Under the pieces are notes generated by a model. That model was not told the origin of the DNA, made no database searches, and saw nothing but the letters and a program-made list of their open reading frames with translations. Positions 57,879 through 64,000 of a DNA stretch of 64,000 nucleotides are shown here, one piece after another. Positions within the stretch are counted from its first letter, which is position 1; the number at the start of each line of letters is the position of its first letter. Origin of the DNA: a virus. A program made the position numbers and the translations under genes. The DNA lies in IMG/VR virus record IMGVR_UViG_3300048694_001005, positions 1 through 64,000 of that record, one strand, 5' to 3'.

Positions 57879-58375
57879 AAGCCATAGTTATACACACAAT
57901 TATTTTATTTTAGGTATTCTTTAAAGATGTGCTAACGCACATCTGCATTTCGCTTACGCTCATGCATTTTGTTGATACCTTAATTGCTTTTAAGACTGTA
58001 TGCTTTTGACTGTGGTATTCATCCAGATCAATCAGTCATAATATGCCTTGACAGACATATTATGAAAGAAACGCTTCATCCGAGTCGTTACAGTCACTGA
58101 TCTAAAGAGATTACAAATTTATTTGCACGGACGCGGTTGATCGGTACGCCCTACTCTAGCATTGCTTGTTATCAACGGGACCTACATTACACGGATCAGC
58201 GGCGTAATGTAAGTTATGGGTTGTGCCTGTTTCACAGAGCCCAAGATCCTTTGGAGCCTAAGGTAGTTCTTGCCTTGCAACACCTGAAATCCGACGGCAT
58301 CAGCTGACTGGCAGTCTCGACAGGGGTCTAGCAGCCTAGACCAAACGCGGTTGCTATGTATTGCCTAAATTATTC
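57879..58375. ncRNA. Gene-free structured region, candidate non-coding RNA
   Basis: No frame longer than about 20 codons is seen in these 497 nt. Several perfect hairpins are present: 57925-57944 (8-bp stem, TAAC loop), 58037-58064 (9-bp stem), 58083-58090 region unpaired, 58183-58211 (8-bp stem), 58306-58316 (4-bp) and 58325-58342 (7-bp stem, CAGC loop). A 9-bp direct repeat, ACGCGGTTG, occurs at 58131-58139 and 58345-58353. Base composition is more GC-rich than the surroundings. The strand is uncertain. It could be a phage ncRNA (GOLLD or HEARO/omega-RNA-like), a degenerate intron, or a relic of a mobile element. Confidence 0.5.
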
Positions 58376-59440
58376 TTAAGATTTGAGCTTACAATTGTCT
58401 AAATGATATCGTGCCATATTTGATGTACCGCCCATTTTGCCACAATGCGGGCATGTAACCTGAATTTGTGGGCCCTTGGGCTTACGCATTTTTTGTTTAG
58501 TTTCTTCTGTTAATATTTTGCCTTTTTTACTTTTGCCTATATTTAGTTTCCACTGTGCCTTTTGCTCTTCGGTCATTTTGTAATAACAAGGTTTGCCATA
58601 CATGCCATTATCTTTGCCTTCGTGACGCATTTTTTCTTTTACCACTGCCAATTCTTCCTCAGTTAAATTTGCGAATGGGTGCCGACCAAACATACCATTA
58701 TCTTTGCCTTTATGTGCCATTTTTGATTTTGCTACAATTAATTCTTCTTCGGTTAGTTTTTCAAAAGGATGTGTTCCATATCTTGGACTCAACATACCTT
58801 TTCGACCATACATTGGATTGTTAACCCCTCTATAATTCTGATTCAACCAGGCCTCATATTCTTCATCGGTTTTATTTCTTTTTGTTGAATTATTTTCTCC
58901 CAACCTAAATTTTGCTCTGTAATTTTCCTTCTCTTCCTCAAGCATACCATGCTCCCAAAGAAAGTTTTCATTTGGGTATCTGTCCTTAATCAAAGTCCAC
59001 AGTCTTGATGCCTCCTCGTCACTTTCTTCGTGCGGCGGCAAAAACTTAATTGGAGGAATAATAGCATTGTAATAACGCCGCTCGCCATTGGGCAATTTTG
59101 TTCTTAATGCATCTTCCACGATCATTTTTTCAACCTCCGCATAGGTCAATGCCGCTTTTGATTTATGAAGTGATTCAATAATAAAAACGAATCGAGATTT
59201 TCCATGCTCTTTAATCAATTTATTAATCGTTTCGGAAGAACTAGTATATGTTTTCCAATCAGATTCTTTGGTGGTCCAAACTTTGTTTTTCCTACTTTTG
59301 AGACGTTTGCTTCTCTTACTAAAAAATAATTTTTTCCCAATGTACTCTCGAGAAGTTTCAGTATCAATTATCCTATATATAAACCCAACCCATTCATTAA
59401 CGTCAAATTTTTTTGGATATTGCCAATGTCCTAAATCCAT
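58376..59440 (-). CDS. GIY-YIG endonuclease with NUMOD3 repeats and zinc finger
   Basis: The product has 354 residues. GFIYRIIDTETSREYIGKK at 19-37 is a GIY-YIG nuclease core, followed by a Lys/Arg-rich insert and RFVFIIESL with a catalytic-type Glu near 89. Residues about 220-310 contain repeated NUMOD3-like units (NPMYGRKG, DNGMFGRH, DNGMYGKP). The C-terminus has a CPHC and HxxxxC zinc-finger-like pair. It is a free-standing homing endonuclease of the Seg type in its domain order. It lies beside the unexplained structured region. Confidence 0.85.
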   Translation of the reverse strand: MDLGHWQYPKKFDVNEWVGFIYRIIDTETSREYIGKKLFFSKRSKRLKSRKNKVWTTKESDWKTYTSSSETINKLIKEHGKSRFVFIIESLHKSKAALTYAEVEKMIVEDALRTKLPNGERRYYNAIIPPIKFLPPHEESDEEASRLWTLIKDRYPNENFLWEHGMLEEEKENYRAKFRLGENNSTKRNKTDEEYEAWLNQNYRGVNNPMYGRKGMLSPRYGTHPFEKLTEEELIVAKSKMAHKGKDNGMFGRHPFANLTEEELAVVKEKMRHEGKDNGMYGKPCYYKMTEEQKAQWKLNIGKSKKGKILTEETKQKMRKPKGPQIQVTCPHCGKMGGTSNMARYHLDNCKLKS

Positions 59441-59446
59441 AAAAGC

Positions 59447-59474
59447 CTCCAGTATATTTATTTATACACTGGAG
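59447..59474 (-). promoter_or_regulatory. Hairpin with a late promoter in its loop
   Basis: CTCCAGT (59447-59453) pairs with ACTGGAG (59468-59474), and TATAAATA (59459-59466, minus) lies in the loop. It is 18 nt before the ATG of the GIY-YIG gene; the ribosome site GGAGG is in the hairpin arm and may be occluded in longer transcripts. Confidence 0.55.
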
Positions 59475-59492
59475 CTCTTTTTGGCAAAATAC

Positions 59493-59678
59493 TTACTTAG
59501 CTGACATAGCGTTTTTCTTGTCCTGGATCTCACCACGACGAACTTTAGTTAGTTTTGCAAGCTCGCTTAGTGCTTTACGGGCACGACCAGCAGCGGCTTT
59601 AACGCCCTTGATCTCAAAACTGTCCTGTTCCTTTTTGTATGCATCAACGGCTGCTAGAATTTGTTCATGTGTTGTCAT
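59493..59678 (-). CDS. Small histone-H1-like basic protein
   Basis: This 61-residue, Lys/Ala-rich protein has ARKALSELAKLTKVRRGEIQ, matching the pattern of histone H1-like (Hc1-type) small proteins seen in phages and Chlamydia. It would bind DNA or RNA non-specifically, for compaction or packaging. AAGGAG precedes the ATG. It is followed on the same strand by the GIY-YIG gene and preceded by gp46. Confidence 0.6.
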   Translation of the reverse strand: MTTHEQILAAVDAYKKEQDSFEIKGVKAAAGRARKALSELAKLTKVRRGEIQDKKNAMSAK

Positions 59679-59730
59679 TGCTATCTCCTTGTAATCTTAA
59701 TTAGTGCTACCAATTTGACCTGTAATATTT

Positions 59731-61734
59731 CTAAATATTTGCTATTTCCGTACTGGTTTCATACGTGGTAAAGCCATTTTCTTTGATGACTCGTAGTATA
59801 TTGTTTACCCTACCTGCTAATTCATCCTTGTGACTTACTAACCAAACACTTTTATTGAGCTCACGACTCATGCGTTTAAGCATACCTAGTGCATTATCTA
59901 CGCCGCTACTATCCAGACCGCTGTCAATTAGCTCGTCAATAAACATGAGATTAATGGGCTGATATAAACTTTCCCAAACATCACGAAATGCCCAGCTAAG
60001 GCTCAGTATCAGTCGTGTTCTTTCGCCCCTCGATAAATTATCAAAGTCCAGCTCACGGCCCAGTTCTGTGATCTCAACTGTGAGGTCATTCATAAAGGTT
60101 ACAGTATGTGGCAACCCAATACGTTCCAAATACTGGCTTAGACGTGTATTCAAATAGCCTAAGTTTTGATCAATGATGCGTTTACGTACAAAGCTATCTT
60201 TGTTGGTCAGCAATTTAAGCAAAAACTCCTGATGCTCACGTAACATTTCCAATTGATTGATGGTTTCATAGTTAATCTCAATCACGGCTTTGTTCTGCAT
60301 CTCGTCGATTTGCTCGACGTAGGGATCAGTTTCGTTTTCTTTGTTTTCAAGATCCCTAACTAGTCCATCCAACCGGTTTTTATGATCCAATGCATCCGCC
60401 AGCGTATCATAAAACACTTTGGGCATGGCGCCCAGGGCTCCTAGCTGTTTTAGTGATGCGTTATGCTCTTTTTCCTCTGCATCAGACCGGTTCCACTGCG
60501 TTTCTGCTTCCGTCAGTGACTCTTGTTTGTCTCTGCGGATTTCTTCCTGCTTGCCATCATGTATAGTTTGTCCACAAGCATAGCATTCGTGATTATCCAG
60601 TGATGCGATCTCTTTGCGCAGCTTTTCCTGAGCTTTTTCTAACTTAGCTTTATCATCTGCAGACTGTTTAATCAGCTTTTTGCATTCATCAATTTGCTTC
60701 TTGCGTTCGTTATAAGCATCAAGGTCACGATGTAGTTGTAATTCTTGCTCAATGTCTATGTTTACTAGATCGCCTATGGATCTAGACAGTTTGGCCTTGT
60801 CTTCTTCGTGTTTATTCTGCCACAGCCGCTGTCTACGCTCTAGTGATTCAATTTGTTCCTTGATTCTCGCATTGGCTTCTTCTGTGGCCTTAATCTTGTA
60901 TTGTTCCTGGGTAATGAGATCTTTGGTATCTTTGATTTGCTCTTTGAGATGATCAGCTTTTTCACTTAGCAGTGTAATACCCAGCAGTTGCTCAATGATA
61001 CTGCGCTGGTCAGCTGCTCTAAGACTTAGGAACGGCTCAGTATAAGTGTTTAGCGCCACGATATGCTTAAACATATCAGGGCTGATACTTAATATACGTT
61101 CTATTTCCTGTTGTGTTTCGCGGCTGTCGCCCTGACTTTCGTCAGCTTCGTTATTTGCAGCATCTACTCGCTCAACGTCATTTACATAAAACTTCAGCAG
61201 TGTGGGTTTACGACCGCGCTCAATGCGATAGTGGTTGCCGCCATGCTCAAAATCCACTGTGACCAGCATGTTTTTGCCGTTGGTCTTATTAATAAGATTG
61301 TCTTTTTTGATATTGGTTAGTGCATTGCCAAATAACCCATAGCTAAGAGCATTGGCAATAGTAGTATTGTGCGACAGAATCCCATTGGTATAGTATCTGT
61401 GTTCATCAGAATTAACGGCAATGTCAAACATATTTTCTTCTTGTTCAGAAGCTTGTATGTCTGATACTTTCTCTAACCCATCAATGGTTTGAATAAATGA
61501 ATTAAGCCTAATGTCTTTTACAAAAATTTCGTTGAATTCATCATTAAATAAAATATGATCGTCCGCGCACCTGAGATTTTTCCCTGATTCGGTTTTGACC
61601 GTCCATACATGATATGGAATTGTTTTATGTATGGACGTAATGGGACTCCATCCAGAATCTGTTTCAATCTCTAAATTTTTTAGATTTACAGAGTTGATAA
61701 ATTTTCTATTTACGATGTCAGAAATTGAATGCAT
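59731..61734 (-). CDS. 46: C-intein fused to the C-terminal part of gp46
   Basis: The product has 667 residues. Residues 1-123 are the C-terminal part of a split intein: block B-like CADDHILF (56-63), block F FDIAVNSDEHRYYTNG (103-118) and block G GILSHN ending in N123. The C-extein starts at T124 (TTIANALSYGLF), exactly the second half of a Walker A loop. The rest is Rad50/SbcC-like gp46: coiled-coils, zinc hook CYAC at 384-387, signature LSRGER at 567-572, Walker B LMFIDE at 596-601 and H635. The start has AAAGGA upstream. After splicing gp46 would be 596 residues (T4: 560). Confidence 0.93.
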   Translation of the reverse strand: MHSISDIVNRKFINSVNLKNLEIETDSGWSPITSIHKTIPYHVWTVKTESGKNLRCADDHILFNDEFNEIFVKDIRLNSFIQTIDGLEKVSDIQASEQEENMFDIAVNSDEHRYYTNGILSHNTTIANALSYGLFGNALTNIKKDNLINKTNGKNMLVTVDFEHGGNHYRIERGRKPTLLKFYVNDVERVDAANNEADESQGDSRETQQEIERILSISPDMFKHIVALNTYTEPFLSLRAADQRSIIEQLLGITLLSEKADHLKEQIKDTKDLITQEQYKIKATEEANARIKEQIESLERRQRLWQNKHEEDKAKLSRSIGDLVNIDIEQELQLHRDLDAYNERKKQIDECKKLIKQSADDKAKLEKAQEKLRKEIASLDNHECYACGQTIHDGKQEEIRRDKQESLTEAETQWNRSDAEEKEHNASLKQLGALGAMPKVFYDTLADALDHKNRLDGLVRDLENKENETDPYVEQIDEMQNKAVIEINYETINQLEMLREHQEFLLKLLTNKDSFVRKRIIDQNLGYLNTRLSQYLERIGLPHTVTFMNDLTVEITELGRELDFDNLSRGERTRLILSLSWAFRDVWESLYQPINLMFIDELIDSGLDSSGVDNALGMLKRMSRELNKSVWLVSHKDELAGRVNNILRVIKENGFTTYETSTEIANI

Positions 61735-62810
61735 TTTTTAATTGTTTCCTTTTGATTTTTCTTGAAATCATGTTCCCAGATAATTAAAACTTCATATCCT
61801 TGATCACGAGCACATTGTAATTTTACAGCATCTGATGCCCATTTATCAATAGATTTAACTTTAGTTCTTGGATTTATAAAATCTGGCGAATATATAGAAG
61901 GGTTAGAGTGCCAAAAATCACCATTATATTCTATGATTTTATTATTGGCCATAATATCATAGATGTATTGTTTTTTACCTGATTCATGTAAAGTAAATTG
62001 ATGTATGGCATCTGGTATTGTTTCTTTTATTGCTTTCAGTATTAATTTTTCTGCTTTTGAAACAGTAATTCCTTTAGTTAACTTTAAACGATTAATTCTA
62101 GACTTTTCTTCTGCGGATTTGGAATTTAAGGTGCCCTGCCATTTATTTTGTCGATCTTGCCAAATCTTCATCCCCTCATTTTCTCCATATTTTTGTACGC
62201 ATATTTCTTTTGAAAAATATTTTTGCGAGTTTGACAACATGAGTGCTGACTCTTCTGCGGAATATCCCCTAGCAGTATAGTATTCAATACATCGAGGTGA
62301 TGAAACTCGATGTAAGTTTGATCTAGATTTTTTTTCGGCACCTAATTTATTATTGGACCTTTTCGTTTCTTTAGCTAATTTAATAGCTTCTTCAAGAGAA
62401 AATCCTTTGTTGATCCAATACTCTTTCCTAATCGGCCTTCGACTATTTCTTTCTTGATCAGCTTCGTCCTCGGTATAGTTTTTTCCGGTTATGGGATTGA
62501 TCTTGTTAAGCCAAAAATTTCTGCTATAAACACTACACGGATTCCCTGATTTATGTTTTTTGGCCTTTATATGCGACTCCTCATAGGTCCAGCCTCGTGA
62601 TAACCAATAAGATTTTGTGCGTGGCGCAGCATTGGTTGTTAGGTTTAATTTTTGACGAATGAATTGCTCAATAATTTTCTTGTTGTTTTCAATTTTGATA
62701 CTCAACAAGTCGACTAACAATTTTTGATACAGATCAGGATTTAAATTTTTGATAGTTTGTTCCATTACTTCTTGACAATTAACTTTGAGTTCTTTGTTCC
62801 AGCGCGGCAT
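61710..62810 (-). CDS. Vsr-like (EDxHD-type) homing endonuclease between intein halves
   Basis: The product has 366 residues. The C-terminal 120 residues form a Vsr-like nuclease: E254 (SKAEKLILKA), YDI with D285, IIEYNGDFWHS with E294 and H301, and IIWEHDF with D348. This matches the pattern of the nuclease family found between split-intein genes in phage metagenomes (I-Bth0305I relatives). The N-terminal half has four repeats of YW-x-x-x-G-[WFY]-[ST]-x-E-E, probably DNA-binding. Start and stop overlap the flanking intein genes by 32 and 25 nt; GGAG precedes the ATG. Confidence 0.88.
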   Translation of the reverse strand: MPRWNKELKVNCQEVMEQTIKNLNPDLYQKLLVDLLSIKIENNKKIIEQFIRQKLNLTTNAAPRTKSYWLSRGWTYEESHIKAKKHKSGNPCSVYSRNFWLNKINPITGKNYTEDEADQERNSRRPIRKEYWINKGFSLEEAIKLAKETKRSNNKLGAEKKSRSNLHRVSSPRCIEYYTARGYSAEESALMLSNSQKYFSKEICVQKYGENEGMKIWQDRQNKWQGTLNSKSAEEKSRINRLKLTKGITVSKAEKLILKAIKETIPDAIHQFTLHESGKKQYIYDIMANNKIIEYNGDFWHSNPSIYSPDFINPRTKVKSIDKWASDAVKLQCARDQGYEVLIIWEHDFKKNQKETIKKCIQFLTS

Positions 62811-63048
62811 TATATAATTCTCCTATAGTAAGTTCCATAACTTCACCGGTTTCGGTGTTACGAACTTTAACTAAAGTATTTATCCCAACACATTTACCCG
62901 TGCCATTGCGAGCACCAGCATCATCACCGCCTAGATCTAAGTTTTCCCCCAGCACCAGTGTTAGGTCCTGGCGATTGAAGTCAATAGCTTGTGTGACATT
63001 ACCCACACTTAGGAAGTTCTTTACAGTGAGATTCTTAACTTTGAACAT
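62779..63048 (-). CDS. 46: N-terminal part of gp46 fused to a 37-residue N-intein
   Basis: The product has 89 residues. Residues 1-52 are the SbcC/gp46 N-terminus (VKNLTVKNFLSVGN, then RNGTGK), the first half of a Walker A loop. Residue C53 starts a short N-intein (CVGINTLVKVRNTETGEV, block A), which ends with the protein at Q-S. C53 is the nucleophile that would begin splicing. The start overlaps the gp47 stop (TAATG). The short N-intein resembles atypically split inteins such as AceL-TerL. Confidence 0.92.
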   Translation of the reverse strand: MFKVKNLTVKNFLSVGNVTQAIDFNRQDLTLVLGENLDLGGDDAGARNGTGKCVGINTLVKVRNTETGEVMELTIGELYNAALEQRTQS

Positions 63049-64000
63049 TATAGGTTCCTATAGATATCTAGCAGTATCTTTTTATCAAAGTGTTCGCTTT
63101 CAATACTAGTAATTTGATTTGTGACAATTTGATCCACACTTTCAAACGTGATCTCGGCAGCGCCAGTCATGTCTGATAATTCTGTTTTCTTAGGCGGGAT
63201 TAATGTAATCTCACGCAGTTGAAACTGATCCACAAATGTTTCTTTGAGATAGTTAGCTTCTTCATAGCTGAGATCAACGTCTAAATTGATACGCACATGC
63301 TGCCGTGGTTTGAGTATCGCACTGGGATCAGCTACGATATCACTGAGTTTAGCCACCAAATAAGTGGGTTGATCGGGCCAACTATGAAATACTGGATCTT
63401 CGCCCCAGGGCAGTATCATGACACCACGTTCAGCATCGCCTGCATCGGCGTAATTATGTGGGAAGCAATTACCAATATACGTAATGTTGCGTTCTGATTG
63501 TCGTTTATGGAAATGCCCGCTGAATACGTGCCCTATATGCCCAAGGTGTTCACGGCGTATTTCACCATGCTCTGGCATCTGTACCATTGCATTCATGTAA
63601 AAGTGTGGCAGCTCAAAGTGACCAAACATATACTGAGCATTAATCTTCTGCAGTCGTTTGTGGTCATCACCCACTAGCCAAGGTACAATACTGACGTCGC
63701 CTTCCTTAAAGAAGTCATTTACGATAGTGATATTGTCAATATGTCTAGCCCACTCAACACTTTGAATGTCGCGCTTGTCTCTATAGTAGAGATCGTGGTT
63801 GCCAGGAATAAAAAACACACGATTAAAACTTTGGCTCATTAACTCTAAACAGCGTAAGCTATAATTAAGAGTCATGATATTGATACTGGCGCGATTATTG
63901 TGGTAATCGCCCAGGAATAAACAAGTATCACAATCGTTTTGGCGCCCCAGCTCGCAGGCCCAGTTTATAAATGCTAGGCAATCTTCATTGTGAAGTTTAC
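63048..64000 (-). CDS. 47: gp47, recombination exonuclease subunit, partial
   Basis: The open frame continues beyond the ATG at 63875 to the window edge, so the N-terminus (including the DxH motif) is missing. About 317 residues are visible. Metallophosphoesterase motifs are FLGDYHNNR, IPGNHDLYY and GHFHKR, which bind two metal ions. With gp46 it forms the Mre11/Rad50-type complex that resects DNA ends for recombination-dependent replication and degrades host DNA. The gene is first in the gp47 - gp46N - endonuclease - gp46C operon. Confidence 0.93.
   Translation of the reverse strand, partial: KLHNEDCLAFINWACELGRQNDCDTCLFLGDYHNNRASINIMTLNYSLRCLELMSQSFNRVFFIPGNHDLYYRDKRDIQSVEWARHIDNITIVNDFFKEGDVSIVPWLVGDDHKRLQKINAQYMFGHFELPHFYMNAMVQMPEHGEIRREHLGHIGHVFSGHFHKRQSERNITYIGNCFPHNYADAGDAERGVMILPWGEDPVFHSWPDQPTYLVAKLSDIVADPSAILKPRQHVRINLDVDLSYEEANYLKETFVDQFQLREITLIPPKKTELSDMTGAAEITFESVDQIVTNQITSIESEHFDKKILLDIYRNL

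What the first reader, a model, noticed from the sequence alone, without database searches (positions are those of the whole stretch)
59731..63048. Fractured gene 46: split intein at the Walker A Lys-Thr junction
Seen: the gp46 N-part ends RNGTGK followed by CVGINT..., and another gene begins with an intein-like C half ending SHN followed by TTIANAL. Joining them restores the P-loop GTGKTT exactly, a common intein insertion site. Known: Dassa and colleagues (2009) described fractured phage genes with split inteins and an intervening endonuclease in metagenomes. Inference: gp46 here is active only after trans-splicing. I am not aware of this arrangement in gene 46 of a characterised phage.
Basis: partly seen in the sequence, partly recalled or inferred. 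Interest (0 to 1): 0.95.

Follow-up and report, generated by a model that had tools for sequence, protein, structure and literature searches.

The report
Split intein fracturing phage gene 46
A phage gene for a DNA-repair ATPase is broken at its ATP-binding motif into two genes that carry the halves of a self-splicing protein element, with a homing-endonuclease gene between them; the arrangement recurs in many uncultured phages and related copies sit at the same motif in several other kinds of phage ATPase, so it looks like a mobile element aimed at ATP-binding motifs.

Summary
On the minus strand, gp46-N (52 aa) is fused to a 37-aa N-intein. A 366-aa endonuclease gene follows, then a 123-aa C-intein fused to gp46-C (544 aa). 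Joining the exteins gives 596 aa that align without a gap at the join to 77 intact gp46 homologues (62-66% identity) and restore GTGK|TT. The C-half is an intein by Pfam profile and predicted fold; its best structural matches are VidaL and Cat, both atypically split inteins. The endonuclease is of the Vsr / I-Bth0305I type. More than 20 distinct gp46 sequences on other contigs share the split, most with the endonuclease, an exact 25-nt HEN/C-intein overlap and a HEN ribosome-binding site inside the N-intein codons. Purifying selection, tree conflict and sharply bounded insert similarity indicate a functional, mobile element. The same lineage sits at Walker A K|T/S in TerL, DnaB-like gp41, ClpB-like AAA+ (both modules), clamp loader gp44 and another AAA+ ATPase; a relative lies beside it in a UvsX/RecA. 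The arrangement is of the known 'fractured gene' kind. New here are the host gene, the HEN at the atypical N-terminal split, and P-loop-directed spread. Trans-splicing itself was not tested.

The parts
62893..63048 (-). gp46 (Rad50/SbcC-like) N-extein, 52 aa, ending in Walker A ..RNGTGK
   Evidence: PHROG 77 (SbcC-like) E 1e-6, profile 295-333
62782..62892 (-). N-intein, 37 aa, CVGINTLVKVRNTETGEVMELTIGELYNAALEQRTQS; Cys1 nucleophile; stop codon 62779-62781
   Evidence: Cys1 in essentially all correctly registered relatives
61710..62810 (-). Vsr-like homing endonuclease gene, 366 aa; overlaps the N ORF by 32 nt and the C ORF by 25 nt
62820..62824 (-). Shine-Dalgarno-like AGGAG of the HEN gene, inside the IGELY codons of the N-intein
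   Evidence: conserved across gp46 and most TerL loci measured
61745..61749 (-). Shine-Dalgarno-like GGAAA of the C ORF, inside the end of the HEN gene
61366..61734 (-). C-intein, 123 aa, with own ATG; conserved H60, D104, H122, N123
   Evidence: Pfam Intein_splicing E 2e-8; A2; model pLDDT 87, Foldseek VidaL E 2e-7 and Cat 6e-6
59731..61365 (-). gp46 C-extein, 544 aa plus stop, starting TTIANAL (+1 Thr)
   Evidence: PHROG 77 E 2e-86, profile 334-956
63048..63998 (-). gp47 (Mre11/SbcD-like) partner gene just upstream, incomplete at the window end
   Evidence: PHROG 100 SbcD-like E 1e-46; Metallophos 5e-6

Best explanation
This is a mobile split-intein element in the phage recombination ATPase gene 46. 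Three overlapping cistrons make (i) gp46 residues 1-52 fused to a 37-aa N-intein, (ii) a Vsr-type homing endonuclease and (iii) a 123-aa C-intein fused to gp46 residues 53-596. The two intein halves should associate into a Hint fold and splice in trans: Cys1 attacks, the +1 Thr takes over, Asn123 cyclises. This rejoins Lys and Thr of Walker A and gives a working 596-residue gp46. The endonuclease should cut intein-less gp46 alleles near the P-loop codons, so that repair from the invaded copy spreads the whole cassette. Shown: anatomy, homology, predicted fold, conserved catalytic residues, purifying selection, lateral spread. Inferred: that splicing occurs, that gp46 needs it, and that this HEN cuts this site.
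For: Anatomy. Intein profile, conservation and fold. Seamless extein junction. HEN: invariant E294, G297, H301 and E346; Vsr entries are the top, sub-threshold profile matches in PDB; Foldseek 3r3p I-Bth0305I prob 1.00, TMt 0.72, and 1vsr prob 0.97. Fixed 25-nt HEN/C-intein overlap and embedded SD sites. dN/dS 0.06-0.22 for C-intein and 0.15-0.20 for HEN; C-intein dS 0.31-0.42 against extein dS 0.8-3.4 for L004/L141/L162. Insert 81-91% identical, with 38-50% upstream (82% in the nearest 150 bp) and 43-80% downstream for L141/L162. Intein-bearing gp46 is not monophyletic (AU p 1e-74), and the intein clade L131/L135/L156 is rejected on the extein tree (p 1e-32). Three split gp46 loci have only a short gap between the halves, so the split stands without the HEN.
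Against: No splicing or cleavage assay was possible. The Pfam hit is just below the curated cut-off (34.5 against 35.8 bits), and the N-half is too short for any profile of its own. The HEN's Foldseek E-value (0.12) is weak; support rests on probability, TM-score and motif. The AU clades were named after seeing trees, and intein-less rows were sampled by similarity to the query.
Confidence: 0.93

Rival explanations
1. The gene is split but the two gp46 fragments work as a non-covalent complex, the intein halves being inactive relics (compare split NrdA of phage Aeh1 and split gp43 of Aeromonas phage 25).
For: Fragment assembly without splicing is documented for other HEN-split phage genes (PMC2988022).
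Against: C-intein dN/dS 0.06-0.22; Cys1, His60, Asp104, His122, Asn123 conserved across the set; the break separates Lys from Thr of Walker A, and a Thr or Ser nucleophile follows the intein in 125 of 126 lineage members.
Confidence: 0.05
2. Assembly or sequencing error broke one continuous gene or contiguous intein.
For: Metagenomic contig; one related locus (L139) does have scattered frameshifts.
Against: Same order with fixed 25-nt overlap in many divergent contigs; identical proteins on another contig, L083; a 1.1-kb intact endonuclease gene lies between the halves.
Confidence: 0.005
3. The intervening DNA is removed at RNA level (group I/II intron) and the Hint-like ends are incidental.
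For: Vsr-like HENs of this family are also reported in group I introns (own knowledge of Dassa et al. 2009 and of I-Bth0305I).
Against: No intron family at E below 1 in 58000-64000; clear Hint fold and conserved splice residues; each ORF has its own start and SD.
Confidence: 0.01

Closest known systems
Fractured genes with split inteins and Vsr-like homing endonucleases (Dassa et al. 2009, NAR 37:2560; paper not held, cited from own knowledge and through PMC6892783, PMC11766414)
   Same: Conserved phage enzyme gene broken by a split intein with a free-standing Vsr-like HEN gene between the halves
   Different: Host gene gp46 not known to me as reported there; split at the N-terminal atypical site (37+123 aa) rather than the canonical ~100+35
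Atypically split TerL inteins GOS-TerL, AceL-TerL, consensus Cat; VidaL
   Same: Short N-intein (GOS-TerL 37 aa, AceL 25 aa; PMC11766414); VidaL and Cat are among the best PDB matches by profile and the two best by fold
   Different: About 25% identity; other host gene. A second TerL site of the form HN|C.F.GSS (as in L152, L274), which I associate from memory with AceL/GOS-TerL, is distinct from the P-loop site
Contiguous TerL P-loop mini-intein of Ackermannviridae (Klebsiella phage Magnus, 159 aa)
   Same: Same lineage (C-part about 45% identical), same Lys|Thr Walker A site, near-identical total length (159 against 160 aa)
   Different: Not split, no HEN, in TerL
Mycobacteriophage TerL1-a P-loop inteins
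   Same: Insertion between Walker A Lys and Thr, described as a classic P-loop insertion (PMC5050341)
   Different: TerL1 host; the term 'split intein' does not occur in that paper
I-Bth0305I / Vsr-like EDxHD homing endonucleases (PDB 3r3p)
   Same: Fold of the HEN C-terminal domain
   Different: About 250-residue mostly helical N-terminal region, with YW..G.S.EEA-like repeats visible in the sequence

Membership tests
Intein (class 1, Hint fold) | N-terminal Cys/Ser nucleophile in block A | tested here: met
   Cys1 of CVGINT; Cys1 in essentially all correctly registered relatives
Intein (class 1, Hint fold) | Block B His, block F Asp, block G His-Asn, +1 Cys/Ser/Thr | tested here: met
   H60, D104, H122, N123 invariant in 39 sequences; +1 T or S in 125 of 126 lineage junctions
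Intein (class 1, Hint fold) | Hint fold | tested here: met
   C-half model pLDDT 87; Foldseek VidaL TM 0.76, E 2e-7. Full N+C fold not modelled
Intein (class 1, Hint fold) | Protein splicing activity | not testable with these tools
   needs co-expression
Fractured gene (Dassa type) | Conserved enzyme gene broken in two, each part fused to an intein half | tested here: met
Fractured gene (Dassa type) | Free-standing endonuclease gene between the halves | tested here: met
   366-aa ORF with its own start and SD
Vsr-like homing endonuclease family | Vsr-like fold and conserved acidic/His active-site residues | tested here: met
   E294, H301, E346 invariant, D285 in 27 of 30 rows; 3r3p prob 1.00, 1vsr 0.97; E-values weak, and the individual EDxHD positions were not mapped onto 3r3p
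Vsr-like homing endonuclease family | Cuts the intein-less allele | not testable with these tools
   lateral spread is indirect support
Atypically split intein (GOS-TerL/AceL/VidaL type) | Short N-intein of 15-37 aa and long C-intein | tested here: met
   37 + 123 aa; range 15-37 aa given in PMC13014065
gp46 (Rad50/SbcC-like) ATPase | Walker A and full-length homology after joining, next to gp47 | tested here: met
   gp47 at 63048-63998

The most novel reading that the evidence does not exclude
One lineage of atypically split inteins, partnered by Vsr-like endonuclease genes parked at the N-terminal split site rather than the canonical HEN site, has specialised on Walker A Lys|Thr/Ser codons. 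It has moved among at least six kinds of P-loop site in phages: TerL, gp46, gp41/DnaB, ClpB modules 1 and 2, clamp loader gp44 and an unnamed AAA+ ATPase, with a more distant relative beside the P-loop of a UvsX/RecA. It makes each host's ATPase depend on trans-splicing. In gp46 it sits in the enzyme thought to process the breaks that homing itself uses.
Probability: 0.75. Interest if true: 0.68.

Novelty: new member of a known kind. Interest (0 to 1): 0.57.

Why it matters
It adds the recombination ATPase gp46 to the fractured genes. It also supplies a large natural set of atypically split inteins with roughly 30-50 aa N-fragments (131 distinct C-inteins collected here, a few of them contiguous), which are sought for protein semisynthesis. 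Because the same lineage occurs split with HEN, split without HEN, contiguous (Ackermannviridae TerL) and as a HEN beside an intein-less TerL (Caulobacter phage Cr30), the origin of split inteins and the jump between unrelated P-loop genes become directly testable.

Tried and rejected
Group I/II intron or other RNA element: nothing relevant in Rfam. Assembly error: rejected by recurrence. More inteins of this profile in the same 180-kb record: PF14890 finds only this one. A contiguous intein in L085, L090 and L107: the spacing looked in frame but stop codons intervene, so they remain split. An apparent excess of N-junctions with Cys at -1 was a one-codon register error from a mis-set L165 query row, not biology. 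The host-gene tree of all C-inteins is poorly resolved: 18 changes on the best tree, only 6 needed in principle. NCBIfam gave nothing for the HEN, and Pfam only sub-threshold matches (MTES_1575 E 0.05). Dassa 2009 was not held.

Full report
Observation. The window lies in a 180,565-bp virus record of IMG/VR. On the minus strand, directly after gp47 (63998-63048), come three ORFs: 63048-62779 (89 aa), 62810-61710 (366 aa) and 61734-59731 (667 aa). The first is 52 residues of gp46 ending RNGTGK, plus 37 residues starting CVGINT. The third is 123 residues ending ILSHN, plus 544 residues starting TTIANAL. PHROG 77 (SbcC-like) matches the first ORF at profile positions 295-333 and the third at 334-956, that is, consecutively. 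Joined, the exteins align end to end with 77 intact homologues at about 62-66% identity, without a gap at RNGTGK|TT.

Intein. The C-half alone matches Pfam Intein_splicing (E 2e-8, 34.5 bits, just under the curated 35.8). With a profile of 39 relatives the nearest solved structures are VidaL, gp41-1 and Cat. AlphaFold gives pLDDT 87, and Foldseek finds VidaL (E 2e-7, TM 0.76) and Cat (6e-6) first. His60, Asp104, His122 and Asn123 are invariant, as is the start residue; the N-halves begin with Cys. A 37-aa N-intein is the size reported for GOS-TerL (PMC11766414), so this is an atypical split. The summed length (160 aa) is almost exactly that of the contiguous relative in TerL of phage Magnus, annotated as an intein of 159 codons.

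Endonuclease. The 366-aa protein has Vsr entries as its top, sub-threshold PDB profile matches. Its modelled C-terminal domain matches the I-Bth0305I catalytic domain (probability 1.00, TM 0.72 by target) and Vsr (0.97), with weak E-values. E294, G297, H301 and E346 are invariant in 30 relatives and D285 is kept in 27. Its Shine-Dalgarno sequence lies inside the codons for the conserved IGELY motif of the N-intein. Its end overlaps the C-intein start by exactly 25 nt in every HEN-bearing gp46 locus measured and in nearly all TerL ones (one value, L146, was computed against the wrong intein copy), with a GGA-type SD usually before the C ORF. These are therefore separate, coupled cistrons, and the cassette has a fixed design.

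Recurrence and mobility. Scans of viral contigs gave 24 distinct C-inteins in gp46 (24 distinct intein-bearing C-exteins), most with the HEN; L085, L090 and L107 have a gap too short for it but remain split. Intein-bearing gp46 sequences are not a clade among gp46 (AU p 1e-74). The intein clade L131/L135/L156 is rejected on the gp46 tree (p 1e-32). For L004/L141/L162, synonymous divergence is 0.31-0.42 in the C-intein against 0.8-3.4 in the C-extein, and for L141/L162 the similarity drops sharply beyond the insert, except for the 150 bp just upstream, where co-conversion or the conserved start of gp46 may explain it. dN/dS is 0.06-0.22 in the C-intein and 0.15-0.20 in the HEN. Together these point to a functional, laterally moving element. 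Caveats: the clades were chosen after viewing trees, and intein-less sequences were sampled by similarity.

Other hosts. The same lineage sits at Walker A Lys|Thr or Lys|Ser in TerL, DnaB-like helicase, ClpB-like AAA+ (first and second module), clamp loader gp44 and a further AAA+ ATPase, as identified by Pfam, PHROGs and BLAST. In UvsX/RecA of Pseudomonas phage MIJ3 a more distant relative sits next to SGKS, again with a HEN relative upstream. Found by N-intein homology alone, most junctions read GK|C (about 25 of those listed as KC are a one-codon register shift). On the C side 125 of 126 begin with Thr or Ser. In all, 131 distinct C-inteins were collected. In the smaller tree the gp46 inteins form one group of 20 (support 90/94) with L107 outside, suggesting that gp46 was entered at least twice; two gp41 members group with TerL members.

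Known and new. Lys|Thr in the P-loop is a known favourite site (PMC5050341). Fractured genes with Vsr-like HENs and atypically split TerL inteins are known; split PolB with a HEN is described in MIJ3 (PMC6892783). A search of 50,697 phage records found 330 with C-intein matches, best 47% identity and in TerL, while the main gp46 intein clade is 55-70% identical to the query, so none of that clade is seen in characterised phages there. Literature searches found no gp46 or Rad50 split intein, but Dassa et al. 2009 was not readable. I therefore file it as a new member of a known kind. The host gene is new as far as I can tell. The HEN at the atypical split and the P-loop-directed spread are the interesting variant. 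Not shown: splicing, cleavage, or dependence of gp46 on splicing.

Noticed in passing
window 58376-59440 (-): A second, unrelated endonuclease gene two genes downstream: SegE-type GIY-YIG (Pfam PF19835 E 3e-30) with repeated NPMYGR/NGMFGR-like motifs.
   Followed up: no
window 61710-62810 (-), N-terminal two thirds: The HEN N-terminal region is mostly helical in the model and its sequence shows about four repeats of the form YW..(R/K)G(W/F/Y)(T/S).EE(S/A), perhaps a DNA-reading array.
   Followed up: partly
L184 (and L246, L189, L190): ClpB-like genes with the split intein at the first AAA P-loop; in L184 both P-loops of one ClpB gene appear split, which would put the protein in three pieces.
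   Followed up: partly
L152, L235, L274: TerL genes with two inteins: the P-loop split intein and a second one of the form HN|C.F.GSS.
   Followed up: partly
L176 (Caulobacter phage Cr30, 2527-3549 and 3596-5245): A homologous HEN stands alone next to an intein-less TerL whose P-loop reads RQSAKST.
   Followed up: partly
L178 (Pseudomonas phage MIJ3, 2052-5058): RecA/UvsX gene fractured by a relative of this C-intein (HN|SGKS) with a Vsr-like HEN upstream; the terms searched in the MIJ3 paper returned only the split PolB.
   Followed up: partly
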